Source of the DNA: Cavia porcellus
Taxonomy: Eukaryota; Chordata; Mammalia; Rodentia; Caviidae
Assembly (NCBI RefSeq): GCF_034190915.1
Contig: NW_026947486.1
Coordinates: forward strand, 18,006,001-18,070,000
Length of the DNA: 64,000 nucleotides
Direction: 5' to 3'
Shown: in pieces, positions 23,759 to 47,900 of the stretch
Layout: every line of letters starts with the position of its first letter
How positions within the stretch are numbered: the first letter of the stretch is position 1
The notes under the pieces: generated by a model
What the model was told of the DNA's origin: nothing
Database searches by the model: none
What the model saw: only the letters and a program-made list of their open reading frames with translations
Position numbers and translations under genes: made by a program

Positions 23759-23764
23759 TCCAGG

Positions 23765-28199: not shown

Positions 28200-31100
28200 A
28201 GAACTGACTTGCTTCAGTCTGAACCTCTGCTTTCACTCTTCAATGATGATGAATAGAACAGACTGGGATACATAAAACTAGGACCCTGGGAGCCCACAGT
28301 CATCACCAAAATTGGAGGAAAACCAATGACTTTTATGGTAGATAGCAGAACTAAAGTTTCCATTGTCACCCAACTTGTTGCCCTCTTGACTTCTCAATGA
28401 ATCCAAGTGGTGGGGGCCACTCACACAGAAAAGAGGTTCTGTCAGAGTAGATCTTGTGAGGTTTGAGGTCATCTCATCAAAGATGAATTCCCACATATGC
28501 ATGAATCCCCTTACTAGGCTGAGACTGCCTCTCAACATTGAGCCACCATCTCCTTTATCCCAAATAGGCCAGTCTGTCTGTCACTCAACCCCCATCTGGA
28601 CCTGATCATGACTCTGATGTCTCCTTGTAATGATGAATGACATCTTTACCAAATCAGATAACATTCTGCTCACAATCCAGACGTCCTGAAGATGTCAATT
28701 ACAGAGCTCTGGGCAGGAGACTCATCTCTGAGGCTAATCATTAACCTTACCCTCTTCTACTTGCACTCAATGTGGGGGCCAATCCTGTTGCTGTCAAACA
28801 GTATCCCATGTCTCAGGAGGCCCACCTTGGGATTCAACTTTACATTGGCAAGCTGAAACAAAATAGAATCTTAGTAGAGTGCCATTCACCTTGAACACTC
28901 CCCTGTTTCCAGTGAAAAAACCAAATGGAGACTATCACCTGGTCCAAAATCTCCATGTTATCAATACAGCCATGGTAACTTTACATTCTACTGTTCAAAA
29001 TCCCTATGCATACTTGGGTTTGCTATCTTGTGTTCTTGTTCATACGTCTGGATCTGAAAGATGCTTTCTTCTGCCTATGAGTAGTACTTACAAGCCAACC
29101 CCTTTTTTTCCCAGAACAGGATGAAAGGGACAACTCACCTGGACTCACCTGCCTCAGGGTATCAAGAGCTCCCCCAGCATCTCTGAGGAAGCATTAGCCA
29201 CAGACCTAGCAAATTTTAGACATAAAGACTTCCAATACACCCTCCTGCAGTATGTAGATGTCATACTGTTATGCAGCCAAAAAGAGACAAATTTCTGGAG
29301 AGGTACACAGACCCTCCTTGGCCACCTGTTAACAGCTGGTTGTAAAGTATTTTGAAAGAAGGCCTAAATATGTAAATTACAGCTATGTTACCTGAGATTT
29401 GATATGGAGAGGGATACAGAAGCCTGGGACCAGAAAGAAAAGTAGTTATATGCTCTTTTCCATGACCAGATTATAAAAAGCTGCTCTGGGAGTTCCTGGA
29501 AACTGCAAGATTTTGCAGGATCTGGATATCCAGATTCACTGGGAAAGCAAAACTATTATTATGGCATGTTTATAGGTACAGGAACTAAAACAGAAGTCTC
29601 CATTTGGACTTTTGAACAAATTGAGACATTCCAAGGCTTAAAAAAGACACTCTCACTGCCTTGGCATTAGGTATTCCTGATGTGACTCACCCCATTTAAC
29701 CTGTTTGTAGATGAGAGAAAATATGTAGCCTTGGGAGTCCTTACTCAAAAAGCTGGACCTTGGGAAAGACCCATTGCCTACCTATCAAAGACATTGGACC
29801 CAGTAACAAAAGGATGGGCTTCATATTTGTGTTCTCTAGCAGCCACAGCCCTCCTTATCTGGGAGGTGAACAGACTCTGGGACAAAAACTTGACAGTCCA
29901 GTTTCTACATGTTGTTCTAGAGCTATTAAACAGTCAGGGACACCACTGGCTTTCAAACAGCCATTTCACCCAGTATCAGAGACTGCTTGTTGAAAATCCC
30001 TGATTTATGTTTCAGCTTATTAAAAATCTAAACTCACCCACCTACTTGTTCAACAAGCTCGGACCTCCAGACCATGACTGCCTCATCCTGACTAACAAAC
30101 TTTTCAACAGTAGACCCAAGCTTCAGATAGTACCTGACCAATGTCGAGTATACCTTATTCACAAATGAATCAGGGACAGAAAGCAACCATCTGGCTATGT
30201 TGTTGTTACTACCAAAGAGGCGCCCTTAGCCTGACCATTTCCCCAAAATTGGTCTGCTCAGTAGACCAAACTCTGGGCACTCATTCAGTCCCAAAACTGG
30301 GAAAAAGATTAAAAGATCAACACACACACTGATTCAAGGAAAACCTTTGGCATTATCCATATCCACAGGATGTTATTATACAAGGAATGTGGACTCCCAA
30401 CAGCAGAAGAAAGACAGATTAAGAATAAATGAAATCTCTCAGCTTCTGACTGCAATTCAGAAACCTAAAATGGTTGCCATTATCCATTGCAAGGTACACC
30501 AAATAGTAAAGGATACTATTACCCTTAGCAATCACAAGGCAGATGAGGCCACCAAATTGGCAGCAGAAAGTTCTACGTGGGGATCAAATGATTTTGTACA
30601 AAACATGGAAGCCATACACGAGATGCCCCTAAAACTGTTGTTAGCCTCTGTAGTGAGCCTCTTCAAGTGGGAAGAAATCAAATGGGGACAACAAGAAGGA
30701 GCACAAATGGGCCCAAAAGGTCTTTGGACATTACCAGATTACCAGGAGATAATTCCCCTAATCTTAGTTTATGCTCTTGTGAAATGTCATCATGATATCA
30801 TGAATGGAGGAAAACTGCTATGAATTGGCTTCTGGGCCACTACTATTACATTGCAAATTTAGCCTCAAACTATGCCTCTGTGAGAGATGTCAAGTCTGTG
30901 CAAGAACTGAACAGTCCTCTGGGCCTAGACCTCTGTCTGGCATTCAACATGCTGTACTCTCCCTTTCCAAGAGCTTACAAATAGATTTTAGAGAAATCAT
31001 GCCATGCAGGAGTTACAAATCTCCTGGTACCTGTTTGTACTTATTCTGGGTGGCCAGAGGCATTTCCCACCAAAATAGAGAAGGCAATTGAGGGCCAGGG

Positions 31101-31420
31101 ATTTGGCTCAGTGGTGTACGCACCTGTCTGAAAAGAATGATGTCATGAGTTGGATCCCCAGTACCAAAAAAAAAAAAGAAAGAAAAGAAAAGAAAGAAAA
31201 GGCAATTGAAGTCTGTAGAGTACTGTTAAGAGAAATAATTCTCAGATATAACCCTTCACCATAGGCAGTGATAATGAACTGGCATCTATAGCAGAAATAA
31301 TCCAGAAACTAGCAAAAGAATTAAAAATCAGAGTTCTGGAAAAGCTAAAAGAGTGAATAGAACCCTAAAATCAGTCTTAACCAAATACCATCAAGTAAAG
31401 AGACATCATCCAGATGATTG
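28200..31420 (+). pseudogene. Old gammaretrovirus-like ERV: protease-polymerase remains
   Basis: The domain order is retroviral. A degenerate aspartic protease appears near 28320 (TFMVDSRTKVSIVTQ, with the active-site D-T/S-G changed to DSR). A reverse transcriptase follows at 28870-29340 (NTPLFPVKKPNGDY; LPQGIKSSPS; QYVDVILLC, where the YVDD box has lost an aspartate). RNase H begins at 29731 (GVLTQKAGPWERPIAYLSKT), with integrase remains at 30840-31400, including a DNE-like segment near 31275. The LTQK-GPW-RP-AYLSK wording is characteristic of gamma/class I ERVs. Many stops and frameshifts mark it as old and inactive. No 5' LTR or gag was seen; the 5' end is truncated. An ID SINE is inserted at 31092-31198. 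Confidence 0.85.
31092..31198 (+). mobile_element. ID-type SINE with 11-bp target duplication
   Basis: GGGCCAGGGATTTGGCTCAG, a GTGTACGCACCTGTCTG segment and GTTGGATCCCCAGTACC form an ID core, followed by an A-rich (AAAGAAAAG)n tail. AAGGCAATTGA flanks it at 31081-31091 and 31199-31209, so this is a precise insertion into the old ERV integrase. Confidence 0.92.
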
Positions 31421-31429
31421 CTGGTAAGC

Positions 31430-32415
31430 CTGTCCAGACAAGCCAGCTCCCTTAAAGACAACCTTGAGGAAACAACACACTAAAAGCCCTGCTCTCACTA
31501 CTCCAGAGGCTGGTGAGTCCACACATGGCTAAAGATTGAATGAACATCATACACCAGAGTACCTGTCTTAACAGACACATGTTCTGCTACCTAGTATGTC
31601 TATTAGTTACCCTCCTCTTATTTATCTTGGTGCTTGCTGCAGGACTCTGGGGTGTATCCCCAGAGAACTGGAAAACATCCCACAAAGTCATCTTCACTCT
31701 TTTCTATATTAGCATAACTACTGGACTGAGTACTTTAAATTGTCTTTCTTAGTTTTAATGTACTGCTACTCTGCCTGGTTTCTACTTCCTTATCTCTTAT
31801 TAATTTCAATGTTCACATTCACTCTCTGAATCACATCTCTGACAGATTGGGAACCCTGTCAAAAATCTACTTTAGTTCTTTCTTATTATATAAATATAAT
31901 TCTTGGGTTACTTACTTTTAGCTGCCTAAACCAAAATTAAAATGACTCCCCTATAGATAATATGTTTAAGCTTACTAGGAGCATATAGAAAAGGAGAATA
32001 TTGGGAATTCCAAGTCTGCCTAGGGTAGGAGAGGACTCAATTCCTCCTCAACCATACTAAATGGGGTGCCTATCAGCCCAACGTGACCTTATATCTTGAT
32101 GCCTGTCCCAATGATCAGACTAATGAATACTATACAAGGTGTGGTGACCTAAGTTGGGAAGGCTTACAGAACCAATAATAAAATATCATCGTTGGCAAGC
32201 ATGCCCACTCCAAAATAGCAACATCCCCTTTGATATGTGTAGTAATATACACTCCTGGTACTGTAGCATTTGGAGCTGTGCCAATATATATTGGCCCAGA
32301 AGGGAAAAATGATGGGATGCAAATGTATGGAAAAACTCTCCCTACAAAGGAGGACCTCCCCTTACTCAGACCTAGCCCCTTTAGTTGCATGAAGGGCATC
32401 TATAATCCTGTCTAG
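31430..32415 (+). pseudogene. Old ERV env, 5' half
   Basis: A hydrophobic leader-like stretch is encoded near 31590-31680 (LVCLLVTLLLFILVLAAGLW), followed by degenerate surface-protein sequence to the AT-repeat. Frames are broken. The env continues beyond the young provirus at about 39856, so this reading relies on context as much as motifs. Confidence 0.6.
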
Positions 32416-32564: not shown

Positions 32565-32570
32565 GATATA
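32565..32570. repeat. Target-site duplication of young provirus (left)
   Basis: GATATA precedes the TG of the left LTR, and GATATA follows the CA of the right LTR at 39808-39813. A 6-bp duplication is typical of betaretroviral integration. The AT-rich context lowers the specificity a little. Confidence 0.85.
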
Positions 32571-33016
32571 TGCGCCGCGCGGCCTCTGAACCCCCGACCG
32601 GCAGGGGAACTGACTCACACGACACACCAGAATGCAGAGACAGAGGTCGCGTTTATTGACTCTCCACACAGGTCGTCCCCGGAACGTTCCTCCCTGATCG
32701 GACTCTCCAGTGGGGCTCTCTCTGTTGAGTAACCCCGCGTAGTCCTCCACTCTCTATGGTCTGCGTGTCTTCTCTTTTTCTCTACCTCCTGCTCTGTCCT
32801 TATATCTATAGTCCTGTCCTATAGGGTAACAAGGCGTGGCAAAGTCTGATTGGGGGACATCAGCTGTAGCTAGGCAGAAGCTGAGGGTAAGAATACGGAA
32901 GTAGGAAACGGGCGCCATCTTGGCATCATTCGATGGGAGGGGTAATCTACTGAAGGCTTCGCTCTTTCCTACAGGCCTCATCTGCTTAGGCAGGTCCTCT
33001 GGCTCGGCTCCCGACA
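32571..33016 (-). repeat. 3' LTR of young provirus (446 bp)
   Basis: Read on the minus strand it begins TGTCGGGAGCCG and ends GCGGCGCA. It has an AATAAA polyadenylation signal (complement of 32652-32657), a CCAAT box, a GATATAAGG TATA-like box and a YY1-like motif CCAAGATGGCGCC. It is base-for-base the same as the right LTR by my reading. Confidence 0.97.
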
Positions 33017-33030
33017 TCTCCCCCTTTTTT
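33017..33030 (-). promoter_or_regulatory. Polypurine tract (plus-strand primer)
   Basis: The minus strand reads AAAAAAGGGGGAGA directly before the 3' LTR. RNase H spares this tract so that it primes plus-strand DNA. Its position and purity are exactly as expected. Confidence 0.95.
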
Positions 33031-33428
33031 CTTTATTAAAGGCGGTGGATCTAAGGGTCCCTCCAAGGTATGATGTTGTTAGATACCTGGGAGTGGGCCT
33101 ACTTTGTAGGCCACGGCATGAGAGAATGTAGAGGTCTATACCCCGCTGTGCATCACCTCATTTCGATGCATATCCTCACGCTAGGACCATGCTTGAGGTG
33201 AGTGGTTCATTTTTTCGCAGGGCCAGGCTTTTGTGAACCGAACCTGGATGCATATAGACATTCATTCCTGCCTTCCCCCCAGCTTTGGGGCGGGTGGCAC
33301 TGCAGTACCCTTGGTCTCGCATCTCAATGCCAACAACTTAGCTCCATGAGAGGACCCTAATAGAGTGGGGTCTGTCTTAGGTTGGTCGGGAGAGCCCCTC
33401 CCGCCTTACCCGTCATTGACTCCATCAC
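33031..33428 (-). other. Noncoding remainder of the env/3' region
   Basis: Nearly 400 bp between the last env-like codons and the polypurine tract has no long frame and no recognisable transmembrane-subunit motif. It may be residual 3' env/untranslated sequence or a deletion scar fixed in this lineage. Confidence 0.55.
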
Positions 33429-33948
33429 TCATCTCCTCGGGGAAGAAGGATGCCATCCAGAGGCACCTGTCTTTCTCGGTCCCCAACTGATGCTTTCCTC
33501 AGTAAACATGATCCAGTTGGGCAGCGAGGAAGCATTTGGGGGCTTAAAGGTGGAGAAAACCACCATATCATTAGAGAGGGGCACAGTGATATTGAACTCA
33601 TGGGAAGTAATCGGGGCATCAGGAAGGCATGGCAATCTAGCTGTACAGTTGTGGGCATAGGTTTGCGGGAGGGTTGGAGATGTAACTGAAACAATGGACA
33701 GGGCTGGGGGATGTAGCCCCCCATACTATTTCAGCATAAGCACCGTTAATCAGCAGTAGTACCGCCAGGCATATTTTATGCCAGTTGACAGGGCGCGGTG
33801 CATGAGCAAACAAGAAGGCGCTCCGTCCCAGGCAGACCCCAAAGAGGAATACCAGAGTATACATTACCACACCCAGCAGTAGGTGGTTCGGTGCCTTGGC
33901 TAGGGTGTCATTGTTCTCCTTCTGCGTTGTCAAGTTGGTCCTTAGCAT
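33429..33948 (-). pseudogene. env: env, truncated and frameshifted
   Basis: An env-like frame starts at 33948, overlapping the end of pol by about 40 bases in another frame, as in related viruses. Its first 103 codons include two hydrophobic stretches, the second (about residues 57-70, ending GAYA) resembling a signal peptide. It stops at TAG 33639-33637. Surface-glycoprotein-like sequence with two N-glycosylation sequons (NIT, NAS) goes on in a different frame down to about 33429. No fusion peptide, transmembrane subunit or membrane anchor was found before the LTR, so about half or more of a normal env is missing. It cannot make a functional envelope; a short secreted or membrane peptide is possible but unproven. 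Confidence 0.75.
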
Positions 33949-36529
33949 TATGGTCCCCTTCTCCTTTTTCTTCCTTTGTGGGGCTTGGAGTCTTTCTTAT
34001 CAATCGCTCCGGTACCCACAGTGGTTCCTTTTCCTGTGGGGACACACAAACCGCGCCTCGGTTCCAGCTGACCACTGGATCCGGGCCCATCCACTGTCCC
34101 GTTAGGACATCCTTCCACTTTACCCATCCTTTGTTGGCGGGAGAAGGGCTACAATGCTCCATCGCCGGGGAGCGATCATTGCAGTTTTGATTCAAAAAAT
34201 TATATGTAAACAGTGCCATGGATAGTCTTGCTTTTGGGGTCAGGCTGTGGCCTATTCCCCCTTTTTGTTTTGTTAAGATGTTTTTGAGGGTTTTATGGGC
34301 TCTCTCAATGATGCCCTGTCCTTGTGGGTTATAGGGGATTCCATGTTTTAACTGGACTTGCATGGTTTCACAAAATTTTGCAAAAGATTTCCCAGTGTAT
34401 GCTGGGCCATTGTCTGTTTTGAGATGTCTGGGTTTTCCCCAGGCTGCCCATGCTGCCAGGCAGTGGTTAATCACATTAGACACCTTTTCCCCTGTTTCCG
34501 CTGACGCAAAGATTATATGAGAGCAGGTGTCTATGGAGACATGAACATACTTTAGAGAACCAAACTCTGCCACATGAGTGACATCCATCTGCCAAATGTC
34601 GCCGGGGGTCAACCCCCTAGGGTTAACTCCGACTGACACTACAGGCGAATGGGTGTCACATGAGCCACAGAGTCGCACAATGTCGCGTGCATCTGCTCTG
34701 GGGATATGGAATGTATTGGCAAGAGTCCTGGCATTAACATGAAATTTGTCATGAAATTGACGGGCTTGTTCCAGTGGGGACAGTATATTGAGAATCCATA
34801 GCGGGCGAGTAGCCGCATCCGCGGCCGCATTGCTCTGCACCATGGGCCCCGGTAGGTGCGTATGTGCTCTTATATGAGTGATAAACACTTTATGGTGTCT
34901 ACTCGTGAGCAATGCCTGGATAGATAAGAACAAGTTTGTTACTTTAGAGGTTGGCTTGATTGGGCCCGCAGTTTCCAGGACCTGTAGGGCATTAACAACA
35001 TATTTCGAATCAGAAACAATATTGAGGGCCTCTGAAAATTTTTGGAGAACTGTTTGTACAATCAACAACTCTACCACCTGTGGTTGATCTGGTTCAAACT
35101 GTATGGTAACCGGAGACTTACCTGAGACTACATAGGCCCCTATCCCGGTTTTCGACCCATCAGTATAGATAGTTGTTGCATGAGCAAGAGGTGCGGAGGC
35201 GGTGATCTTTGGGAATATCACCGGATGTTGAGTAACAAACTGTAGTATGGGGTCCTTAGGAAATTGATTATCTATATCCCCGGGGAACACGCATCTCAAG
35301 ATGGTCCAAGTATCCAGGCAGGCGGTCAGGGTCTTTATCTGAGAAGCAGTATAGGGCACCCAAATGGCATAAGGCGGGGAACCAAGATGTTGGATCGCTC
35401 TACTGTGCGCCTCCAATGCCAGAGAAGCAACTGATTCCGGGTAGTGTTCAATGACCTTGGCAGGTGAGACCTTAGGGTGCACCCACAGGAGTGGTCCCTT
35501 TTGCCAAATCACCGCCGTGGGCTGACATCTGGTCTGCAGCAAGCAGATTTCGAAAGGCTGTCCTGGGTCAATCCTCTGTAAAGTAGCTCTACTTATGGCC
35601 TTTTCAACCCTCTCTAAGGCAACCCTGGCCTCTGGGGTGAACTCTCTGGGGGAGGCAATGTCCGGGTCCCCCTTCAAGAGATCAAACAGAGGCTTTAAGT
35701 CAGAATTGGAGACATGTAAGTAAGGTCTGACCCAGTTTATATCTCCTAATAACTTCTGCATGTCATTTAAAGTGGTGAGATTATCCGTTCTGATGGTTAC
35801 CTTCTGCGGAGAAACCAGAGTAGAGGAGAGTTTGGCACCCAAGTAGGTCACCACTTCTCCCCCTTGAATCTTGTCAGGGGCAATGTTCAAGTTAGCCTTT
35901 CTCAGGGCCTTGACCAGTTGGCCTAACATATCTTCTAACATTTTTGTTTCCTTTGCACTGATAAGCAGGTCATCCATATAATGAACGCATCTAATCTTGG
36001 GGAAGGCTTTTCGTATAGGGGTCAGCAAGGAATCCAAATAGATTTGACACATAGAGGGACTGTTGGCCATACCCTGAGGTAGGACCACCCATTCGTATCT
36101 GAGATCAGGGCTCTCCTGGTTAACCGTGGGCAGGGTGAAGGCAAATCGATGGGTGTCTTCCGGATGCAGGGGAATAGAGAAAAAACAATCCTTAAGGTCT
36201 ATGACATAGACTGGCCAATGTCTTGGGATCGCTGAGAGTGCCGGAAGCCCCCTTTGAACTGCCCCTAAGGGTTGCATCTGCGCATTGATCGCTCTCAAAT
36301 CATGGAGCAGCCTCCATCTGCCTGATTTCTTCCTGATGACAAAAATGGGGGTATTCCATGGGGAAGTCGATGGCTTTAAGTGTCCAGTTTGAAGCTGGGT
36401 TTTTATTATTTCCGTTAGTGCTGAGAGCTTCTCCTTGGGCAGGGGCCACTGAGGTACCCAAACTGGACTTGGGGACTTCCAAGTGATTTTAATCGGGGTG
36501 GGTAGGAGAACTTCTTCAGTGGCCCCTAG
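33908..36529 (-). CDS. pol: pol: reverse transcriptase, RNase H, integrase (open)
   Basis: The frame is open from the pro-pol slip site (36535-36529) to the stop at 33908, about 873 codons. It is normally reached by -1 frameshifting, not from its own start. Reverse transcriptase: LPQGMANSPSMCQIYL and the catalytic HYMDDLLIS (YMDD at about residues 184-187 from the slip). RNase H: IYTDGSKTGIGAY and VSDSKYVVNAL. Integrase: an H-X3-H-X23-C-X2-C zinc module ending RLCGSC, then a D,D-35-E catalytic set (DVTHV; KTDNGPAY; GIIERAH). The C-terminal DNA-binding part has WVPERLIRK. All key residues are present and no stop or frameshift was seen. It would copy the RNA genome into DNA and insert it. Confidence 0.95.
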   Translation of the reverse strand, partial: LGATEEVLLPTPIKITWKSPSPVWVPQWPLPKEKLSALTEIIKTQLQTGHLKPSTSPWNTPIFVIRKKSGRWRLLHDLRAINAQMQPLGAVQRGLPALSAIPRHWPVYVIDLKDCFFSIPLHPEDTHRFAFTLPTVNQESPDLRYEWVVLPQGMANSPSMCQIYLDSLLTPIRKAFPKIRCVHYMDDLLISAKETKMLEDMLGQLVKALRKANLNIAPDKIQGGEVVTYLGAKLSSTLVSPQKVTIRTDNLTTLNDMQKLLGDINWVRPYLHVSNSDLKPLFDLLKGDPDIASPREFTPEARVALERVEKAISRATLQRIDPGQPFEICLLQTRCQPTAVIWQKGPLLWVHPKVSPAKVIEHYPESVASLALEAHSRAIQHLGSPPYAIWVPYTASQIKTLTACLDTWTILRCVFPGDIDNQFPKDPILQFVTQHPVIFPKITASAPLAHATTIYTDGSKTGIGAYVVSGKSPVTIQFEPDQPQVVELLIVQTVLQKFSEALNIVSDSKYVVNALQVLETAGPIKPTSKVTNLFLSIQALLTSRHHKVFITHIRAHTHLPGPMVQSNAAADAATRPLWILNILSPLEQARQFHDKFHVNARTLANTFHIPRADARDIVRLCGSCDTHSPVVSVGVNPRGLTPGDIWQMDVTHVAEFGSLKYVHVSIDTCSHIIFASAETGEKVSNVINHCLAAWAAWGKPRHLKTDNGPAYTGKSFAKFCETMQVQLKHGIPYNPQGQGIIERAHKTLKNILTKQKGGIGHSLTPKARLSMALFTYNFLNQNCNDRSPAMEHCSPSPANKGWVKWKDVLTGQWMGPDPVVSWNRGAVCVSPQEKEPLWVPERLIRKTPSPTKEEKGEGDHNAKDQLDNAEGEQ

Positions 36530-37425
36530 AAAAAACCCAGGCCATGTCTGCCTTCCTTCTTCTCCATAGGTACAGGGGAAGTCTGGCCCTGTAGGGCAGA
36601 GCCCAAGCCCTTGCCGGGGATATACCCTTGATTCTTAAGCATGCCCTTGGCCTGAGGAGAACAATTGGATGTAAGGGTGACGTCCATCTGGGTAAGGATG
36701 TCTCTCCCCCACAGAGACACTGGCAGTTGTAGGACAAAAGGCTGGAAATGACCCTGGTGGCCTTCCTCATCACACCAAGGCAGGGTTATGGCGCTAACCT
36801 GAGGAGCTGTCACCATCCCTAACCCTTGAAGTGTGTTGTCTGCTGTATTTGTGGGCCAACTAGAGGGCCAGTCCTTCTTAGAGATGATAGACCGATCGGC
36901 CCCAGTGTCCAAAAGCCCTGTAATTTTTCTCCCATTTATTCTCAATGATAACATGGGTCTTTTGTCAAGTGTCAAATGCAGCCCTTCGAAAATCCCCGAC
37001 CCCGCGCCTGGTCCCCTACCGCCCCTGATCCTCTGCTGAGAGAGGAATTTTCCGTGAAGGCTGGGGAGCAACAAAAGCTGCGCTATCTTATCTCCCTCGT
37101 TAATGACCAGAGTTCCGTTAGGGGATCGGACCAGAATTTTTATGCGGCCTGTGTAGTCAGAATCAATGACTCCGGGGACAACAATGAGACCTTGCAGGGC
37201 AGCTGAAGCTCTACCCAACACCAGTCCAACTGTCCCCTCAGGCAGCGGTCCACAACACGGGGTTTCTACGATTTGGGTACCCAATTCAGGCGTTAGTATG
37301 AGTCTGGTGGTGGCACAGAGGTCCAGTCCTCCCGAGCCGAGCGTGGCTCTTGTGAGGTTTGGCTGTCTCGAGGGGACATCCTCAGGGTCCGGGGGCCCAC
37401 TCCTTGGAGGGGCCCCCTCTGGCCG
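36526..37425 (-). CDS. pro: pro: dUTPase-protease with G-patch (open)
   Basis: About 299 codons are open from the gag-pro slip site to TAG at 36528-36526. The N-terminal half is a dUTPase: GGLDLCATTRLIL, a central GLIVVPGVIDSDYTG motif and NEGDKIAQLLLLP. The C-terminal half is a retroviral aspartic protease with LLDTGADRSII, ending in a glycine-rich G-patch (GYIPGKGLGSALQG). This dUTPase-protease-G-patch order is a hallmark of betaretroviruses. The protein is made as a gag-pro fusion by -1 frameshifting; it has no ATG of its own near the start. dUTPase limits uracil in viral DNA, and protease matures gag. The RSG-type dUTPase motif reads GRAS, a minor variant. Confidence 0.94.
   Translation of the reverse strand, partial: RPEGAPPRSGPPDPEDVPSRQPNLTRATLGSGGLDLCATTRLILTPELGTQIVETPCCGPLPEGTVGLVLGRASAALQGLIVVPGVIDSDYTGRIKILVRSPNGTLVINEGDKIAQLLLLPSLHGKFLSQQRIRGGRGPGAGSGIFEGLHLTLDKRPMLSLRINGRKITGLLDTGADRSIISKKDWPSSWPTNTADNTLQGLGMVTAPQVSAITLPWCDEEGHQGHFQPFVLQLPVSLWGRDILTQMDVTLTSNCSPQAKGMLKNQGYIPGKGLGSALQGQTSPVPMEKKEGRHGLGFF
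36529..36535 (-). promoter_or_regulatory. pro-pol -1 ribosomal frameshift site (T TTT TTC)
   Basis: The minus strand reads TTTTTTC immediately before the pro stop codon TAG. In the pro frame it is split T-TTT-TTC, the X-XXY-YYZ slippery pattern. Slipping back one base joins pro to an open pol frame with no intervening stop. Confidence 0.93.
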
Positions 37426-39140
37426 TTTTTTGTCTCTGATAGCTGTCTGCCACTCAAGCGGTTTCCGTCACTATCAAAGATGGAACGACAGTCCTCAGCA
37501 CGGTGAGCTCCTTTCCGGCAGCGCCTGCAAATCTCCCCTCCCCCTTGGACGGATCCGCCGGAGTGATTCCTTTGGGGGCACTCACGCTTCAGATGCCCTA
37601 GCTTTCCGCAAGTGAAGCAGGCGCCTCCTTGGGGCCTCTCTCTGGCCTTTATTTTGTTATTGGTAGCCGCTGCGAGCAGGGCGGCCACACCTGCGTTGGA
37701 AAGGGGGCCCCCTATCTCCCTGCAAATTCTTATCCAGGTGTTTAAGTCCTTGTTCTTATGTGGTGCGATTGCTGCCCTGCATTCTTTAGTACATTGTTCG
37801 AAAATCAGTTGCTTGACCAGTGGTAGAGCTGTCTCCTTACTAGGGAAAATCTTTTCTGCTGCATCTTGCATTCTAGCCACAAAATCTACAAATGGTTCTG
37901 CGGTGCCTTGAACTACCTTAGAGAGGCATGCGGATGCGGTCCCAGAGCCGCTTACCTGTTTCCAGGCTCGCATTCCAATAGTATTGATCTGCTCGTAGAC
38001 TGCACTGGGGTACTGCGTTTGATCTTCAGCATATTGCCCCTCCCCCGTTAACATGTCTCTGCTCCATCCCCTATGACCCCCGGCAGCATTCCTCTCTGCC
38101 TGTTCTGCTGCGTACTCAGCATACCAAGCCCTCCAATCCAGATAGCTGCCAGCTGGAAGGCAGGCCTTAGCCAATTGGGCCCAATCCCCAGGCGTAAGGG
38201 GAATAGAGCAGAGATTTTCTAGTATTGCCACCGTGTATGGAGCTTCGGGGCCAAAAGTCGTGACCGCGCTTTTCAACTCTTTTATCTGCTTAAGGTCAAA
38301 AGGCTCCCACACATTCCTACCCTGGCCTGGGGCAACTTGTATGGGGTACACTCCATAGGGGCCCACGTCTATCCCTGGTTCCGGCATCCTTGGTCCCGCC
38401 CACCATTTAGAACGCCAGAGCGAGCCATGGAAGTATCTTGAACCCCGAGGCGGCTCAGCATAGGACGGTGGCGATGGGCGGGGACCGATAGTAGCCGCCA
38501 GTCTCCTAACCTCACTCTGCGCCCCCTGGTGGCACAGTTCCTCACGGCGCACCGCCTCCGGAAATAGGTCCCAAGGTGGGGCCGAAGGTAATTTCTCCTG
38601 TCGCCAGCAGGGGTCAGCAGAGGGCTTCTCTTTTTCTCCCTCCGCGTCCCCCATTGAGATGGCGCGGAGCTCGTGTCGGAGACCCCCGTAGATGCTTTTC
38701 CTGGACTGTGCTTCTTCATAATAGGAATCAGACGAGTCCGATTCCTCCCCCCTGGGGTCTTCCTCCCGAAGGGAACCTTCCCTAGAGTTTTCAGCTTTCG
38801 CCCGTTCGAAGGCTTCTCTCACCTCTTCGATACCTGCACCATGGACAGCGGGCGGGAAACCCTCGTTTTCCTTCTCTAAGCAGGTATGTATCATCTCCCA
38901 CAAGGGGCGAACGGAAGGGGATAAGTCCCCGCCGAGCTCGGCAGAGGCCAGATCCCCCCCCAACCTCTCCCATGAAGGCAAAGTCAAACGTCCCGTGGGT
39001 AGGAACCACGGGGCTATCCGGTCAATCTCGGCAATAAACAGCTCGAGAGTGGCACGACTTACCCCAAGATCTTTTGTTTTTAACAGTCTCTTAAGGGCCT
39101 TGGCTAAATCCCCAGCCTCTTTGCTCGGTAATTGGCCCAT
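37293..39140 (-). CDS. gag: gag polyprotein, 615 aa (open)
   Basis: The polyprotein forms the virus particle. The start at 39140 has an A at -3 and G at +4, and MGQ gives an N-terminal glycine fit for myristoylation and membrane targeting. Residues 1-100 are matrix-like. Late-budding motifs PSAP (about 185-188) and PPSY (about 224-227) follow. Capsid begins near 300 (PYTVAILENL), with the major homology region at about 411-430 (QGTAEPFVDFVARMQDAAEK). Nucleocapsid has two CCHC zinc knuckles, CFTCGKLGHLKREC (508-521) and CRRCRKGAHRAEDC (538-551). The last 44 codons overlap pro. The full frame is uninterrupted, which is rare for an endogenous copy. Both budding motifs are retained although env is lost, suggesting loss of env is recent. 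Confidence 0.95.
   Translation of the reverse strand: MGQLPSKEAGDLAKALKRLLKTKDLGVSRATLELFIAEIDRIAPWFLPTGRLTLPSWERLGGDLASAELGGDLSPSVRPLWEMIHTCLEKENEGFPPAVHGAGIEEVREAFERAKAENSREGSLREEDPRGEESDSSDSYYEEAQSRKSIYGGLRHELRAISMGDAEGEKEKPSADPCWRQEKLPSAPPWDLFPEAVRREELCHQGAQSEVRRLAATIGPRPSPPSYAEPPRGSRYFHGSLWRSKWWAGPRMPEPGIDVGPYGVYPIQVAPGQGRNVWEPFDLKQIKELKSAVTTFGPEAPYTVAILENLCSIPLTPGDWAQLAKACLPAGSYLDWRAWYAEYAAEQAERNAAGGHRGWSRDMLTGEGQYAEDQTQYPSAVYEQINTIGMRAWKQVSGSGTASACLSKVVQGTAEPFVDFVARMQDAAEKIFPSKETALPLVKQLIFEQCTKECRAAIAPHKNKDLNTWIRICREIGGPLSNAGVAALLAAATNNKIKARERPQGGACFTCGKLGHLKRECPQRNHSGGSVQGGGEICRRCRKGAHRAEDCRSIFDSDGNRLSGRQLSETKNGQRGPLQGVGPRTLRMSPRDSQTSQEPRSAREDWTSVPPPDSY
37425..37431 (-). promoter_or_regulatory. 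gag-pro -1 ribosomal frameshift site (A AAA AAC)
   Basis: The minus strand reads AAAAAAC in the correct gag phase (ACA-AAA-AAC-GGC). The same heptamer is used by mouse mammary tumour virus at gag-pro. Seven bases downstream GGGGGCCC can pair with GGGCCCCC eleven bases later, a strong GC hairpin suited to stimulating slippage. Slipping gives an open dUTPase frame. Confidence 0.94.
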
Positions 39141-39266
39141 ATTCTATCAAAAGATACCCTCGGGTGGCTAAGATCTGCTCACCTCGATACCTGGCGTATG
39201 TACACCAGGGGAGTTAAGAAACTTGCCCTGTAGGTGCGCGCCACCCAGGGCCCAGGCGTACTCCCA

Positions 39267-39275
39267 ACTTACCTG
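39267..39275 (-). promoter_or_regulatory. Major splice donor in the proviral leader
   Basis: The minus strand reads CAG/GTAAGT, a perfect consensus donor, between the primer site and gag. In simple retroviruses such a donor makes the spliced env mRNA. The acceptor was not located. Confidence 0.7.
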
Positions 39276-39340
39276 GCCGACGACCGCTGCCGTGTGGTAA
39301 GCCAAAAGCGGTCTGTCTCTGCAGTACGGGGGTGATCAGC

Positions 39341-39358
39341 TCCCCGTACGGGCCACCA
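39341..39358 (-). promoter_or_regulatory. Primer-binding site matching tRNA-Ile
   Basis: The minus strand has TGGTGGCCCGTACGGGGA, three bases (TTT) after the LTR end. The plus strand, TCCCCGTACGGGCCACCA, is the 3' end of a vertebrate tRNA-Ile (AAU-type T-arm/acceptor plus CCA) as I recall it, with 18 of 18 matching. The tRNA primes minus-strand DNA synthesis. Betaretroviruses usually use tRNA-Lys, so this choice is unusual. Confidence 0.85.
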
Positions 39359-39361
39359 AAA

Positions 39362-39806
39362 TGCGCCGCGCGGCCTCTGAACCCCCGACCGGCAGGGGAA
39401 CTGACTCACACGACACACCAGAATGCAGAGACAGAGGTCGCGTTTATTGACTCTCCACACAGGTCGTCCCCGGAACGTTCCTCCCTGATCGGACTCTCCA
39501 GTGGGGCTCTCTCTGTTGAGTAACCCCGCGTAGTCCTCCACTCTCTATGGTCTGCGTGTCTTCTCTTTTTCTCTACCTCCTGCTCTGTCCTTATATCTAT
39601 AGTCCTGTCCTATAGGGTAACAAGGCGTGGCAAAGTCTGATTGGGGGACATCAGCTGTAGCTAGGCAGAAGCTGAGGGTAAGAATACGGAAGTAGGAAAC
39701 GGGCGCCATCTTGGCATCATTCGATGGGAGGGGTAATCTACTGAAGGCTTCGCTCTTTCCTACAGGCCTCATCTGCTTAGGCAGGTCCTCTGGCTCGGCT
39801 CCCGAC

Positions 39807-39807
<1 letters not shown>
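39362..39807 (-). promoter_or_regulatory. 5' LTR of young provirus (446 bp; promoter)
   Basis: On the minus strand U3 starts at 39807 (TGTCGGGAGCCG). It contains a YY1-like CCAAGATGGCGCC (complement of 39703-39715), a CCAAT box (39644-39640) and a GATATAAGG TATA-like box (39598-39590), then R/U5 with AATAAA (39448-39443). It drives transcription leftward through gag. It is CpG-rich compared with its surroundings and thus a likely methylation target. It is identical by eye to the 3' LTR. Confidence 0.96.

Positions 39808-39855
<48 letters not shown>
39808..39855. repeat. (AT)n tract and right target duplication
   Basis: It begins with GATATA (39808-39813), the second target-duplication copy, and continues as pure AT into the resumed old ERV env at TTCCTAATGACACC. 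Confidence 0.92.
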
Positions 39856-39856
<1 letters not shown>

Positions 39857-40688
39857 CTAATGACACCATTTGGATACCATGCTGCTTATTTAGCCATTCA
39901 AATGAATGGCACAAGACCTGGTGATGTTAGTTCAAGTACAGAAGGTTTTTATACCCTAAATTCAGGTAGCTGTGCCTAAGGTTTTCACACACCTTAGATC
40001 TCCCATAACCAAAGATAATACTACTAAAGACCTGTCTCCACGTGTCCCAGACTTGTTATAATTGGTTAGTGGGACCCATGTTGTCCTTCAACAGGTCAAT
40101 CCAGCCCTGAGGGAAAACAACTGGCTCTTTGTGCCCCTCACTGCCCTACCCTATTGGTCTGTAGGACTAATTCCAAATGCCTCTTGATTTAATATCACCC
40201 GCTCTCTAGCAGACCTACTTCAAGATTCCCCAACCAAAATAATAGGAAATTCCACCTGATCCATAGGAAATGGAGGCTCTCTTAGTGTGTCAACTCGCTG
40301 TGCCTCTGTAACTCAGCTCAGTTCCTTGCTCCAGGATAGTGCTGGAACATTTTATATATGTTTTAATGGGGTATATCATGTGTTTTCCCCACAAACCATG
40401 GGCCTCTGTGGTGTTGCCTTCCAGGTGCCTAATTTCAACTTCTACTTGGGTGATCAAGGCCTCCTGCCTCTCTCAGAGTCATACATAAAATTAAACCCCA
40501 TGTTCCTGCCTATCTAGCCAGCATAACAATACTGGGAGTCCTAGCTATGTGGGGAACGGCCCTTGGATTGGGGCAAAGTCAATATGCACAGTTAAAACAA
40601 ATAATAGGAGAGTTTGAAAATGTACAAAGCTCTATTGACACCCTTCAGGAACAAATTGATTCTTTAGCCATGATTGTTTTTACAAAAC
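39856..40688 (+). pseudogene. env: Old ERV env, continued (surface C-terminus and transmembrane N-terminus)
   Basis: Readable stretches include CASVTQLSSLLQDSAGTFYI (about 40300) and a hydrophobic fusion-peptide-like run ITILGVLAMWGTALGLG (about 40525-40575). A heptad segment then reads FENVQSSIDTLQEQIDSLA (40610-40670), typical of class I ERV transmembrane subunits. Stops occur between pieces. It is cut by a MaLR LTR at 40689. Confidence 0.8.
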
Positions 40689-41079
40689 TGTTATGGTTGA
40701 AACATTGTGTCAACTTGACAAGTTTGGAAGTTAAACTAAGAGACTCAACAGGGAACTAAAATCCTTACTTTGTAAATATCCTCATCCTGTGCAAGAGGAG
40801 GGCATAGAGATTTTGTGAGTGCTACATCTGCCCTGCGAGGCAGGGAGTGGCCTATGTATAATATAAGGGAGGAGAAGAGGCTTATTCTTCCCCTTTTTGC
40901 TCTTGCTGCATTTGCTGGCTGCTGCCTTGAAGTGGTGCCCCTCAGTCATGCCACCCTGATTTGGAGCCCCCTGATTTTGGACTGAAATACCACAAACAGA
41001 GAGCTAAATAAACTTTTTCTTCCTTCATTTTGAGTGTTAGGTATTTTGTCCCAGCAATGAAAGAAAAGTAACCAAGACA
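40689..41079 (+). mobile_element. MaLR-type solo LTR (391 bp) inside old env
   Basis: It begins TGTTATGG and ends CCAAGACA, with TATAATATAAGG and CTAAATAAACTTTTTC in between; it is the same family as 6727-7088. Env resumes immediately after it (LDLLTAQQEGI). A short A-rich duplication (AAAAC/AAAAT) may flank it, consistent with 5-bp target duplications of ERV-L/MaLR elements. Confidence 0.85.
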
Positions 41080-41471
41080 AAAATTGATGGGCCTTAGACC
41101 TCTTAACAGCTCAACAAGAAGGTATCTTATCTTTTTCTGGAAGAATTTTGCTATTAGGCTAAAAAAGAGTAGTAAGAGAAAACTCCCATCAGTTGTGGAA
41201 GTCACTTGAGTAAAGGGTGAGAAATATGATGGGTGACTCTTCCTGGTTGGGATCCCTGGACTTTCTCCTCTTGTGGATACAAGTTTTGCTCAGATCTCTG
41301 ATGGATCTCATGCCAGTCCTCTTTGTAGGCCCTTGTGTGATCCAGCTGCTGATTCACTTTCTGACTGAAATCTTTGAGGTCATACATCACCAGATCCTCT
41401 TAAAAGTCCCCCCTTATCAGTGCCTTAAAACTGAGGGGGAAAATCTTCTTTATAAATAACACAGGGGGAAA
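41080..41471 (+). pseudogene. env: Old ERV env transmembrane subunit, 3' end, and polypurine tract
   Basis: LDLLTAQQEGILSFSGRILL resumes the env after the MaLR. A membrane-spanning segment and tail are encoded near 41245-41400 (SLDFLLLWIQVLL ... VGPCVIQLLIHFL) in another frame. ACACAGGGGGAAA at 41458-41471 is a polypurine tract abutting the LTR. Confidence 0.8.
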
Positions 41472-41943
41472 TGTGACAGAAATTTTGAAATTTTAAAACT
41501 ACCTAGCAGCCTGATATCATACTGAGACAAGATATGCTTATCCTGCCTGCCACATGGCTAGTCTGTTAAACTCAGTCAGCCTTGACTGTCTGTGTCCATC
41601 TGCTTTTCACAAGTATCCTGATCCAGATCAACCTGACAATATCTATCTGCAATGTCTGTGTTTTCCAACCCAAAAATATATCCTGTTTTTCTAACATATT
41701 TGAAGGATCTTCTCACCAGCAACAGATGATGACTAACTCAACCCAATGAAAACTCACCATGCTTTTAAGCTTCTACATTTCCTGCTTGCAAACCTATATA
41801 AACCAAACCTGAAACTGACTCAGGGCTGGTGATTTGGAACTTATTTCCATCATTGTAATAAACAGTTGCTTTCCAATTTCTTGGTATGGAGTTTATTCCT
41901 TTTATTTTAGTACCAGTTCTGCAGCAATTCCTGGAAGATAACA
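41472..41943 (+). mobile_element. 3' LTR of the old class I ERV (3' end approximate)
   Basis: It starts TGTGACAG after the polypurine tract, with a TATATAAA box at 41796-41803 and AATAAA at 41857-41862. The TATA-to-poly(A) spacing fits a gammaretroviral LTR. There is no 5' partner in the window to confirm the 3' boundary. Confidence 0.75.
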
Positions 41944-42445: not shown

Positions 42446-43810
42446 AAGAAAAGAGGCCAGAAGGTGAGTCCAGCACACCAGTGCCAGCCCGGGGAGAGTT
42501 CAAGATCATTGCTCCCATACAGCCACACAAGACTGGGCTCTGCAGGTATTGGGCCTACCTAGGCTATGACCAGTGACCTTCTTTCAAACCAGGGAACTGC
42601 ATTACTGGAGGTGAGTTCCTGCACACCAGCTCAGGCCCCAGGAGAGCTTAAGATCATCCTTCTCAGTGGTCAAGGATCCACCCATTTTCCAACCACACTA
42701 GACTAGGCTTGGGAGGTTTTGTGGCCCTACTGGACAATGCCCAGCAACCTTTTTCAATCAGGGGAGTTGAGGGGATGTGAAGTGAATTCCAGCGCATTGG
42801 TGCTTGCCCAGGGAGAGCTTTGGATCATCATCCTCAGTGGTTAGGTGCGCATCTAGCTTCCTGGAATGCTAGAGGTGGGACCCTTGCTCAGCCCCTGAGT
42901 GGACCACACTCAGCAACCTCCATTCAGTCCCAGGAGCCAAGGGCATAGGAGATTATTTCCAATATGCCCAGGGGAAGCTTTGGGACATCACTTGAAACAC
43001 AGAAATATAGGAAAATGACAAAACAGGTCCCTGAGCGGGTCTGTAAAGGCCTCGCCACTCCCTGCGTGCTTGGCAGACTCTGGAGTTCTGAGCTAGCAGG
43101 CACAATCGGTTTCAGAGGCTGGGCGGCCTGGGGTGAGTGTCCTCCACACCATCCCCCAAGCCTGGCTAGATTGGGACCCTCACTCAGCCCGGACAGAGAA
43201 CTTCGCGGCTTCCTGTTGCACTGGACCAGTGCAGCAGGTCCTAAGCAGGCCTGCAACGACCTCCCCGCTCCCCGTCATGCTTGGAGGACTCTGGAGTTTT
43301 AAGCAAGCAGGCACCATCAGTTCCAGAAGCTGGGCAACCCAGGGTGAGTGCCCCCCACACCACCCCTGGAGCCCAGCTAGCTTGGGACCTTCACTCGGCC
43401 CCAGACAGGGAACCTTGGGGCTTACAGTTGCACTGGACCAGTGCCGTGGGTCTTGAACCAGCCTGCACAGGTCTCATCACTCCCTGATGGGCTTGGTGGA
43501 CTCTAAGCTCTGGGCCTGCCAGCGCCATCAGCTCCAGAGGCTGGGGGATCTGGAGTGAGTGTCACCGCACCATCCCCCGAACCCAGCTAGTTTGAGATCC
43601 TTGCTGGGCCACGAACAGGGAACTTGTGGCTTCTTGTTGCACTTGACCAGCTCTGCAGGTATTGTGCCAGCCTGCCCCACCCTCAGTGACCCTCTCTCAA
43701 TCTGGGGAACTAGGTGGCCAGAGTCCCAGGAGCTGAGGGTATAGAAGAGGATTTCCAACAGACCCTGGGGAAGCCTTGGAATAACACTTGAAACACAGAA
43801 ATATAGGAAA
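42446..43810 (+). promoter_or_regulatory. L1 5'UTR: two different monomer sets in series
   Basis: First, two to three monomers of the ~170-bp kind also seen at 15.7-16.3 kb (GGAGAGTTCAAGATCATTGC-like blocks near 42493, 42640 and 42809). They end in the leader CATCACTTGAAACACAGAAA and the first ORF1 codons (about 43017). Then come GC-rich monomers of about 195-230 bp (GACTCTGGAGTTYT near 43074 and 43268, a variant at 43495). A second copy of the leader (43784-43810) precedes the real ORF1 start. Confidence 0.8.
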
Positions 43811-44870
43811 ATGCCAAAACGAAAGACCCAATTACAACCTCAAACCACCAGCCCATCCCAAGAAACCTTAGGAGCTATATACATAGAAGAAAATATATGC
43901 CATACACCTGAAATACCTGAAATAATAGCAACTGAAACAAAGAAGCAACTCTGGGAAGCTTTAAAGGAATTCAAACTAGAAATAATGTCCCAGGTAAAAT
44001 AAGAAATGATAAACAAAATGAAGGAGATGCTGAACATATCTAAAGAAGACACAGTTAAATAATTGGAGGAATTGAATAAAAAGATACAATCGCTGAATGA
44101 ACAATATAAGAAAAAGACAGAATACATAAAGCAGATGCAAAAGAGATATACAGAAAATCAAAAATTGAATGGAAATTCAAAGTTGTAAAAACTACCTCAA
44201 TGAAAGTGAAGATAGAATTTCAGACCTCAAAGACAAGATTGCAGCTAGTGAACAGGAAAGGAAAAATCTTTTAAAAAGAACAAGGAATCAGGAAATAACA
44301 ATTCAAAACCTGCAAGATGATGCAAAGGAAAAAAAACATAAGATTGATAGGGATTAAAGAAAAAGAAGGGGACAGCATAAAGGATGTCAAGAGGATATTC
44401 AGAGAAGTAATAGCTGAAAATTTCCCAAACATGAGAATGGAAACTGACATCAGGATCAGTGAAGCAAATAGGACTCCAAATAATCATAACCAAAATAAAA
44501 CTATATGCAAACATATAATAATCACCATCCCAGAAATCCACCATAAGAATAGAATATTAAAAGCTGTCAGAGAGAAAAAACAGATCACTTATAAAGGAAA
44601 ACCTATCAGAATCACAGCAGACTTCTCAGTACAAACAATAAAGTCAAGAAGAGCATGGAGTGAAGTATTTCAGATTTTAAAGGAAAATGATTTCCAATTT
44701 AGACTGTGTGCCCTGCAAAACTGTCCTTCAAAATCGATGGCTAAATAAGATACTTTCATGACACAGGACAGCTGAAGAGCTTCATGATCACCAAGCCAAC
44801 CCTGCCAAGATTATTGAAAGACAGTTTAGATACACTTAGGAAAAAACCACTAAGCAAAGCAGATAATTAA
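43811..44870 (+). pseudogene. L1 ORF1, few disruptions
   Basis: It starts MPKRKTQLQPQTTSPSQETL. The N-terminal part and coiled coil extend to a stop after YIEE...KLEIMSQVK (44002), with coiled coil again at 44169-44357. The RNA-recognition domain (ETDIRISEANRTPNNHNQNK; KHIIITIPEI; KGKPIRITADFS) is open over 44317-44748. The C-terminal domain is broken after 44748. Its RNA-binding half is one of the best preserved here. Confidence 0.9.
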
Positions 44871-44906
44871 ACAGAACAGACAAAGACACAACTGCAGAAA
44901 GATGAC

Positions 44907-47900
44907 ATGTCAACAATAAACCAACATATAACAGTTATAGCCATTAATGTAAATAGTCTCAATGCATCAATTAAAAGAAACAGACTGGCAGAATGGATCA
45001 AGAAACAAAATCCAACCACATTCTGTCTACAAGAAACCCATCTAACCCAAAAGGATACTCAGAGACTGAAAGTCAAAGGATGGAAAACAATACTTCATGC
45101 AACAGGAACCCCCACCCCCCAAAAAAAGCAAGGATAGCTACTCTGTTTGCAGACAATGTGAACTTCAAAGCAGTAATGATCAAAGACATAAAGAAGGTCA
45201 CTACATACTGGTTAGAGAAAAACTTCAAGAGGAAGAGATAACTATCTGAAATATGTATGCACCAAATTCCAGAGCACCCAGTTATATACAACAAGTTTTA
45301 ACAGAAATGAAAAACCAAATTAGCAGTAACACAATTATAACCGGATACCTTAACACACCATTGACACCAAGGGACAGATCAACCAGACAGAAAATCAGCA
45401 AAGAAATAACACAAGTAAATCACACCTGTGAAAAAATGGACTTAATAGACATATACTGAGTGTTCCATCCAACAACATCAGAATACACATTCTTCTCAGC
45501 AGTACATGGGTCATTCTCTAAAATAGACTATATATTAGCCCACAGAACACATTTAAATAAATGTAAAAGAGTTGAAATTTTCCCTTGAATGTTATTGGAT
45601 CATAGCGCCATGAAATTAAAAATTAATGATAAAAATACCGCAAAAATCCCATAAACACATGTAAACTGAATAACACAATCTTGAGTAATCAGTGGGTAAC
45701 AGGGAAAATTAAAGAAGAAATTAAACAATACCAACAAGCAAATGAAAATAAAAATACAACTTACCGGAATCTGTGGGAAATAATGAAAGCTGTTCTCAGA
45801 GGAAAACTTATTGCACTGAGTTCCCACATCAGGAAAACAGAATGAATGCAAATAATCTGATGTGACACCTCAAACATCTAGAAAAAGAAGAGCAAGTCAA
45901 GTCCAAAGCCAAAAGAAGAGAGGAAAGTAAAAAAATCAGAGCAGAAATTAATGCAATAGAGACTAAAAAAATCCAAAGAATGAATGAATGAATCAAAGAG
46001 TTGGTTCTTTGAAAGAATAAATAAAATTGATAAGCCCCTAGCCAATCTTCTTTAAAAAGGGAATAAAAAGCTCAAATTCATGCAATAAGGAATTAAAAAG
46101 AGAAATCATTACAGACTCTGTAGAAATACAGAAGATCATCAACACCTATTTCAAAAACCTCCACTCTGATAGGTTCAATAACACAGAAGAAATGGACAGA
46201 TTTCTAGAAACAAATGAACTACAACAGCTGGGTCAAGAAGTTGTAAAGCTGCTGAACAACCCAATTTCTATTAATGAAATTGAAAATGTAATTAAGTCTT
46301 TACCTACAAAGAAAAGCCCAGGCCCAGGCAGATTCACTGTGAAATTCTACAAAAAATAGAAAGAAGACTTAATGCCGACATTCCTCAAACTCTTCAATGA
46401 AATTGAAATGGAAGCAATTCTTCCTAAGTCATTCCTGAAAGCAAATATTACTCTAATACAAAGTCTGAAAAAGACCCAACTAAAAAAATAGAACTACAGG
46501 CCAATCTCTCTATTGAACACAGATGTAAAAATCCTCAATAAAATATTGGCAAACAGGTTGCAGCAAATCATCAAGATTATACACTATGAACAAATGGGAT
46601 TCATCCCAGGCATGCAGTGATGGTTCAACATACATAAATCAATAAATGTAATCCACCATATCAATAAAGCCAAAAGTAAGAATCATATGATCATACCTCC
46701 ATATGCAGAAAAAGCTTTTGATAAGTTCCAACATTCACTTATGATAAGAACCTTACAGAAAATAGGAATAGATGGTCTTTACCTCAATATGATGAAGGCC
46801 ATTTATGAAAAACCAACAGCCAGCATCATATTAAATGGCCAAAAATTGAAGGCCTTTACTTTAAAATCAGGCACAAGACAAGGATACCCCTTATCACTGC
46901 TCCTATTAAACATAGTACTGGAAATAATAGCCAGAGCAATTAGACAAGAGAGTGAAATAAAAGGAGTAAAGATAGGAAAAGAGGAAGTTAAATTATCACT
47001 ATTTGCAGATGACATGATTCTCTACATAGAAGACACCCAAAACTCCATTGAAAGACTCCTAGAAAAAATAAATAAATTCAGCAATGGATACAAAATCAAT
47101 ACTAAAAAATCAATAGTATTTCTATATATTAACAACAAAATCACTGAGAGAGAAATGACAAGCCACACCCCTCATACTAGCATCCAAAAAAATGAAATAC
47201 TTAGGAATTAATCTCATGAAAGAAGTAAAAGATCTATACAGGAATAATTATAATATCCTAAAAGAGAAATCAAAGAGGATCTCAGAAAATTGAAAGACAT
47301 TCCTTGTTCATGGATGAAAAGAATAAATATTATGAAAATGGCCATTCTCCCAAAACTGTTATACAGATTCAATGCAATCCCAATAAAAATACCATGAACA
47401 CACCCCATAGATCTAGAGAGATCACTCCTAAAATTCATCTGGAACCAGAAGAGACCTAGAATAGCAAAGGCAATTCTAAGCAGCAAAGGCAAGGCTGGAG
47501 GCATTCCAATCCCTGACTTGAAGTTATACTACAAAGCAACTGTAATAAAATCAACATGGTACTGGAATAAAAACAGATCAGAAGACCAATGGAATAGATT
47601 AGAAAATACAGCCACAATTACAAACACACTCAACCACCTTATCTTTGATAAAGGGGCCAAATATGTTCCCTGGAAGAACAATAGTCTCTTTAATAAATGG
47701 TCCTGGAAACTAAAACTAGAGCCATGTCTTTCACCATGTAGTAAACTATAATCTAAATGGATAAAACATCTGAATATTAAAACAGAAGCACTAAATCTGT
47801 TGGAAGAGAAATCAGGTAAAAATCTTGAAGACAAAGTGGTAGGTAGAGAATTCATGAATAGAAAACAAACCACATGGGAAATCCTTCCCAGAATCAATAA

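What the first reader, a model, noticed from the sequence alone, without database searches (positions are those of the whole stretch)
32571..39807. Very young betaretrovirus-like provirus with identical LTRs and open gag, pro and pol
Seen: two 446-bp LTRs with no difference I could find, a GATATA duplication, TG...CA ends, and uninterrupted gag (615 codons), dUTPase-protease and pol (about 873 codons) with all catalytic motifs. LTRs are identical at integration and then drift, so zero differences over 446 bp implies a recent event on an evolutionary scale. Every other element in the window is heavily mutated. The copy may be polymorphic in the species and able to move.
Basis: partly seen in the sequence, partly recalled or inferred. 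Interest (0 to 1): 0.93.

Follow-up and report, generated by a model that had tools for sequence, protein, structure and literature searches.

The report
Young envelope-less betaretrovirus-like provirus, isoleucine-tRNA primed
This stretch of what is likely rodent DNA holds a retrovirus-derived mobile element with two identical ends and three unbroken genes but no recognisable envelope gene; it likely inserted recently and is predicted to spread, if at all, only by copying itself inside its host's own germ cells.

Summary
The two 446-bp LTRs are identical at 446 of 446 positions, end in TG...CA and sit between GATATA repeats. gag (615 codons), pro (313) and pol (908, stop to stop) are open with their core domains, on the minus strand. 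Two -1 slippery heptamers lie in phase. CpG observed/expected is about 3.7-7.3 times that of the 10-kb flanks. The element sits inside an older, decayed ERV (class I by my reading).

There is no recognisable env: 891 nt separate pol from the 3' LTR, and the three longest ORFs there match no Env family. The primer binding site matches tRNA-Ile at 18 of 18 positions, not the lysine tRNA that PMC3621094 gives for betaretroviruses.

Best reading: a young, env-less class II (betaretrovirus-like) ERV in a rodent, perhaps of the squirrel family. Youth is bounded, not proven: no LTR difference means under about 0.75-3.4 My (95%) at assumed rates. Copy number, polymorphism and mobility could not be tested. 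It is a variant of a well-known kind, of moderate interest.

The parts
32565..32570 (.). target site duplication GATATA (left copy)
32571..33016 (-). 3' LTR (the provirus reads on the minus strand), 446 bp
   Evidence: 446 of 446 identical to 39362-39807
33017..33034 (-). polypurine tract next to the 3' LTR
   Evidence: read directly from the sequence
33017..33907 (-). 891-nt interval between pol and 3' LTR; no env recognised; possible remnant of the env 5' end (leader-like stretch in one frame, three N-glycosylation sequons in another), unproven
   Evidence: three longest ORFs: no Env family in Pfam up to E 10; two of them: no Env in PDB up to E 5 and nothing in NCBIfam; frames
33908..36634 (-). 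pol: RT, thumb, RNase H, integrase (908 codons stop to stop)
36532..36538 (-). pro/pol -1 slippery heptamer GGGTTTT (overlapping TTTTTTC at 36529-36535)
   Evidence: correct phase, letters checked; fold z -2.95 in 36377-36536
36526..37467 (-). pro: dUTPase, aspartyl protease, G-patch (313 codons)
37425..37431 (-). gag/pro -1 slippery heptamer AAAAAAC
   Evidence: correct phase, letters checked; lowest fold z of 78 windows, -4.39, at 37337-37496
37293..39140 (-). gag: p10 matrix, p24 capsid, two CCHC knuckles, MGxxxS start, PSAP and PPSY (615 codons)
39341..39358 (-). primer binding site TGGTGGCCCGTACGGGGA, tRNA-Ile, 3 nt after the 5' LTR
   Evidence: 18 of 18 to the tRNA-Ile site printed in PMC1084362
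39362..39807 (-). 5' LTR; TATAA at 39591-39595, AATAAA at 39443-39448
39808..39813 (.). target site duplication GATATA (right copy)

Best explanation
It is a provirus of a class II (betaretrovirus-like) endogenous retrovirus with identical LTRs and open gag, pro and pol but no recognisable env, which likely inserted recently and would spread by copy-and-paste retrotransposition inside the germ line rather than by infection. Predicted working: the 5' LTR (TATA and polyadenylation signals present) drives a genomic RNA; [quoted passage not shown] Gag, predicted to be myristoylated and to carry PSAP and PPSY late motifs, packages the RNA; reverse transcription would start from tRNA-Ile on an 18 of 18 matching primer site; the integrase would insert the copy with a 6-bp duplication. 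Shown: LTR identity, duplication, frames, domains, catalytic motifs, slippery sites in phase, primer-site match, no recognisable env. Inferred: recent date, expression, frameshifting, primer use and mobility.
For: LTRs 446 of 446 identical, 6-bp GATATA duplication. Gag, pro and pol open with core domains. Solved relatives with the best scores: RT 7sr6 (507-508 bits), integrase 7usf (251 bits), Gag 8c9m and 6hwi, dUTPase 2d4l, protease 6s1v; I recall these as HERV-K, MMTV and M-PMV chains, the tables give only molecule names. Slippery heptamers in phase; the gag/pro one lies in the window with the lowest fold z-score of 78. CpG observed/expected 0.40-0.70 inside against 0.095-0.157 in the flanks. 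Primer site matches tRNA-Ile at 18 of 18. Nested in an older ERV: RVT_1 and RNase H pieces on its left.
Against: No second copy, empty allele or transcript could be examined. LTR identity can also come from gene conversion or a collapsed assembly. High CpG alone is not unique: a 446-bp stretch at 53508 reaches 0.73. The dUTPase match lacks the last 20 profile positions, and its last motif looks atypical (consensus recalled), so that enzyme may be inactive. The fold signal at pro/pol is no proof: the opposite strand of that window scores lower still (-3.70). Pol genus was not tested by a tree.
Confidence: 0.8

Rival explanations
1. An older insertion whose two LTRs were made identical by gene conversion, or whose LTRs were collapsed to one consensus by the assembler.
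For: Identical LTRs cannot by themselves separate the cases; the window is a single assembly, and no reads are held.
Against: Three open frames (5.5 kb coding; 236 nonsense mutations expected per unit divergence, so 2.4 at 1%) and raised CpG across the body also point to youth; conversion between LTRs would not mend genes. Both junctions carry the 6-bp duplication.
Confidence: 0.12
2. A recent germ-line copy of a full exogenous or endogenous betaretrovirus that lost env only in this copy.
For: The 891-nt interval has a leader-like stretch and, in another frame, three sequons, as a cut-down env 5' end might. Gag has MGxxxS and late motifs suited to budding. A betaretrovirus with env (GPDRV) is reported from prairie dogs, of the squirrel family.
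Against: No Env family match. The interval has 9, 12 and 13 stops in its three frames, about the 11 expected from its stop-triplet fraction of 0.038, so it looks non-coding while gag-pro-pol are open; env loss therefore probably predates this insertion.
Confidence: 0.2
3. Gag-pro-pol kept open by selection because the host uses a protein from it (domestication).
For: Open frames.
Against: Identical LTRs and intact primer, polypurine and slippery sites are what a young mobile copy shows; nothing here shows host use, and such youth leaves little time for selection.
Confidence: 0.03

Closest known systems
Mason-Pfizer-like (type D) betaretroviruses
   Same: gag p10/p24 with two CCHC knuckles, dUTPase-protease-G-patch in its own frame, two frameshift sites, LTR of 446 bp within the 300-500 given for type D (passages of PMC3621094); best solved hits for dUTPase and protease are 2d4l and 6s1v (recalled as M-PMV)
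   Different: no recognisable env; tRNA-Ile primer site, whereas PMC3621094 states that all betaretroviruses use lysine tRNA variants (passages); pangolin beta ERVs likewise carry Lys sites (PMC12584738, passages)
ERV-PDRV.1-Cynomys ludovicianus (prairie-dog ERV, PMC7354474)
   Same: betaretroviral gag-pro-pol without a definitively identified env, in a squirrel-family rodent, with many near-identical genomic copies (passages and discussion section read)
   Different: not the same element by its primers: published primer 591R has 8 of 27 mismatches at its best place, 36159, and the three best places of 494F (7, 8 and 8 of 27 mismatches) all lie outside the provirus. Its sequence is not held here, so the true distance is unknown
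[quoted passage not shown]
   Same: betaretroviral gag-pro-pol layout, dUTPase, G-patch, two CCHC knuckles (14 residues apart there, passages; 16 here)
   Different: 403-bp LTR, tRNA-Gln primer site, env present, thought to be exogenous
Intracisternal A particles (recalled, not tested)
   Same: env-less class II elements that multiply inside the germ line
   Different: primer tRNA and Gag targeting differ as recalled; no sequence compared

Membership tests
Class II (betaretrovirus-like) ERV | betaretroviral matrix (Gag_p10) and p24 capsid | tested here: met
   PF02337 1.4e-13, PF00607 2.2e-40, PF19317 1.9e-13
Class II (betaretrovirus-like) ERV | pro in its own frame with dUTPase, protease and G-patch | tested here: met
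   PF00692, PF00077, PF01585; dUTPase profile matched only to 109 of 129
Class II (betaretrovirus-like) ERV | -1 frameshift sites at gag/pro and pro/pol | tested here: met
   heptamers in phase; fold z -4.39 and -2.95; frameshifting itself not shown
Class II (betaretrovirus-like) ERV | 6-bp target site duplication, TG...CA LTR ends (length recalled as usual for the class) | tested here: met
Class II (betaretrovirus-like) ERV | Pol groups with class II in a tree | not tested
   only best solved relatives by score; protein database searches failed
Genus Betaretrovirus as described in PMC3621094 | lysine tRNA primer binding site | tested here: not met
   18 of 18 match to a tRNA-Ile site
Genus Betaretrovirus as described in PMC3621094 | env gene | tested here: not met
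   891 nt only; three longest ORFs have no Env family match
ERV-PDRV.1-Cynomys ludovicianus | binding sites of its published pro-pol primers | tested here: not met
   8 of 27 mismatches for 591R at 36159; the three best 494F places lie outside the provirus

The most novel reading that the evidence does not exclude
An isoleucine-tRNA-primed, env-less class II retroelement lineage that is still spreading in a squirrel-family rodent, as a genome-internal copier that abandoned both the envelope and the lysine primer of its betaretroviral ancestors.
Probability: 0.3. Interest if true: 0.6.

Novelty: new variant of a known kind. Interest (0 to 1): 0.42.

Why it matters
A young, open copy gives a marker of recent ERV activity and a clean view of a class II lineage that lacks a recognisable env and carries a different primer site. 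The ground squirrel is cited, among a few other mammals, as one in which LINEs and/or SINEs have fallen quiet (PMC5857283, passage read), so if the host is one, this would show an LTR element staying young where the others stopped. Presence and absence across individuals would test that directly.

Tried and rejected
Env in the 891-nt interval: its three longest ORFs were scanned against Pfam up to E 10 and two of them against PDB up to E 5 and NCBIfam. No Env was found; the only hits were weak and unrelated (Pfam COX15-CtaA 0.016 and AP5B1_barrel 0.086, PDB E 1.4 and 0.22). Shorter pieces were not scanned. A leader-like stretch and three sequons remain unexplained.

RNA export element (CTE-like) before the 3' LTR: fold z -2.37 in two foldings, with 3 and 5 of 200 shuffles as stable; a first scan gave -3.34 in 1 of 13 windows, finer windows -0.94 to -2.41. 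Inconclusive.

Rfam RSV_RNA at 36135-36423 (75.9 bits, gathering score 105): many of the model's pairs are broken and it lies in RT coding sequence, so I take it as RT homology, not an RNA element.

Relatives: viral contigs scan with pol, 10 pattern matches, 0 relatives. Protein database searches failed or timed out 4 of 4 times. Host assembly: 8 of 8 requests unanswered. AlphaFold model of Pro without an alignment: mean pLDDT 31.5, discarded.

Literature on an Ile primer site in class II ERVs: searches returned 0 papers and 75 returned 9, of which I saw the listing only; I claim no absence from print beyond these searches.

Old ERV's own LTRs: not found; the one match was to a repeat shared with several other places in the window.

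Full report
Observation. The two LTRs are identical at all 446 positions. They begin TG and end CA and lie between two GATATA copies. The joined flanks give one GATATA at the head of a long TA repeat. Because the local sequence is nearly pure TA, only the G makes the six bases informative. blastn finds no further copy of the LTR and no match to the body in the rest of the window.

Anatomy. The provirus reads on the minus strand. In its own order: 5' LTR 39807-39362, with TATAA and AATAAA; three bases; primer site 39358-39341; gag 39140-37293; pro 37467-36526; pol 36634-33908; an 891-nt interval; at its end a polypurine tract 33034-33017; 3' LTR 33016-32571. Pfam finds matrix p10, p24 N- and C-domains and two knuckle families in gag; dUTPase, protease and G-patch in pro; RT, thumb, RNase H, integrase zinc, core and C-terminal domains in pol. 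The matrix start MGQLPS fits N-myristoylation, and PSAP and PPSY fit late domains (motifs recalled). Catalytic residues of RT, RNase H, integrase and protease are present. The end of the dUTPase, its last 20 profile positions, is not matched, so that activity is in doubt.

Expression signals. A AAA AAC at 37431 and G GGT TTT at 36538 lie in the phase needed for -1 shifts. Of 78 windows of 160 nt (39 places, both strands) across the body, the one over the gag/pro site folds with the lowest z-score, -4.39; the one at and after the pro/pol site has -2.95, but its opposite strand, which is not the transcript, has -3.70. So the structure supports the first site and less clearly the second.

Age. 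Zero differences between two 446-bp LTRs gives a 95% upper age of 3.36, 1.53, 1.12 or 0.75 My for assumed rates of 1, 2.2, 3 and 4.5 per billion sites per year (the rates are assumed from memory). CpG observed/expected is 0.70 in the LTR, 0.64 in leader and gag, 0.42 in pro, 0.41 in pol and 0.40 in the interval, against 0.095 and 0.109 in the 10 kb on either side and 0.124 and 0.157 over the whole flanks. The exception is a CpG-rich stretch near 53.5 kb, which reaches 0.73. The provirus sits in an older, decayed ERV: RT and RNase H pieces at 29125-29352 and 29686-30000 match Pfam (2 of 8 pieces of that ERV tested; the other 6, env-like pieces included, had no match). That it is class I, and that its remnants on the right are env (40454-40756), is my reading of the translations and not supported by a family match.

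Env and primer. The interval between pol and the 3' LTR is 891 nt, against an env frame of about 1.8 kb in GPDRV (nt 5275-7092; PMC7354474, passages). Its three longest ORFs match no Env family. It has 9, 12 and 13 stops in its three frames, about what its composition would give by chance. The primer site TGGTGGCCCGTACGGGGA equals the tRNA-Ile site printed in a table of PMC1084362 (passage; match checked). PMC3621094 says that all betaretroviruses use lysine tRNA variants (passages), yet GPDRV in a squirrel-family rodent is reported with tRNA-Gln, so primer changes in this group are not unheard of.

Host. ID-like SINE matches lie at 5 places and a B1-like match at 14598-14706, with two weaker B1-like ones; an Alu-type probe also matches two of these three places, more weakly (probes from memory). 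This points to a rodent. The squirrel family is a guess from recalled ID variants, at about 0.5: ID elements are also numerous in beaver (2149 of 3780 selected SINEs, PMC5335264, passages). L1-like elements are many: endonuclease and RT domains at 9515-12616 (2 of 3 pieces matched) and RT at 46621-47208; the 10 self-matches of 1.4 kb or more are 81.6-87.4% identical.

Mechanism. With gag, pro and pol open and no env to be seen, the simplest reading is a retrotransposon-like ERV that copies through RNA inside the germ line. Gag with predicted membrane and late motifs may still bud; whether it does is not known. All steps beyond sequence features are inferred.

Known or new. It is a class II (betaretrovirus-like) ERV by the four features tested; a fifth, the Pol tree, was not tested. 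It fails the lysine primer site and env, which belong to the genus description; so I do not file it as a member of genus Betaretrovirus. The nearest published parallel that I found is ERV-PDRV.1, a gag-pro-pol ERV without identified env; 652 alignments in the Gunnison's prairie dog assembly cover over 80% of it at over 90% identity (PMC7354474, discussion section read). Its primers do not fit here. A young env-less class II ERV in such a rodent is therefore expected in kind, and the primer site is the main new point.

Noticed in passing
28200-32400 and 39860-41480: Decayed older ERV on the plus strand that holds the provirus: RT and RNase H pieces match Pfam; class I nature and env-like remnants on the right by reading only.
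   Followed up: partly
36135-36423 (-): Rfam RSV_RNA match at 75.9 bits, below the gathering score, inside RT coding sequence, with many broken pairs.
   Followed up: yes
53000-53700: CpG-rich stretch (observed/expected up to 0.73 per 446 bp), possibly a promoter CpG island; ORFs at 51834-52394 and 53241-53744 had no Pfam match.
   Followed up: partly
6728-7088 and 40720-41079: Interspersed repeat pair, 80% identical; looks like a rodent DNA-transposon-type repeat (recalled); the second copy lies in the old ERV.
   Followed up: no
8245-13851 and 43702-49268: Two L1-like copies, 85% identical over 5.6 kb in opposite orientation; the first keeps a 403-codon open stretch with an RT match.
   Followed up: partly
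25397-26195: Tandem duplication of a 396-bp unit, about 83% identical copies.
   Followed up: no
23759-24247: Array of about 90-bp units, 5.5 copies.
   Followed up: no
33028-33187 (-): Moderately stable fold before the 3' LTR, where PMC3621094 places an RNA export element in M-PMV; z about -2.4, inconclusive.
   Followed up: partly
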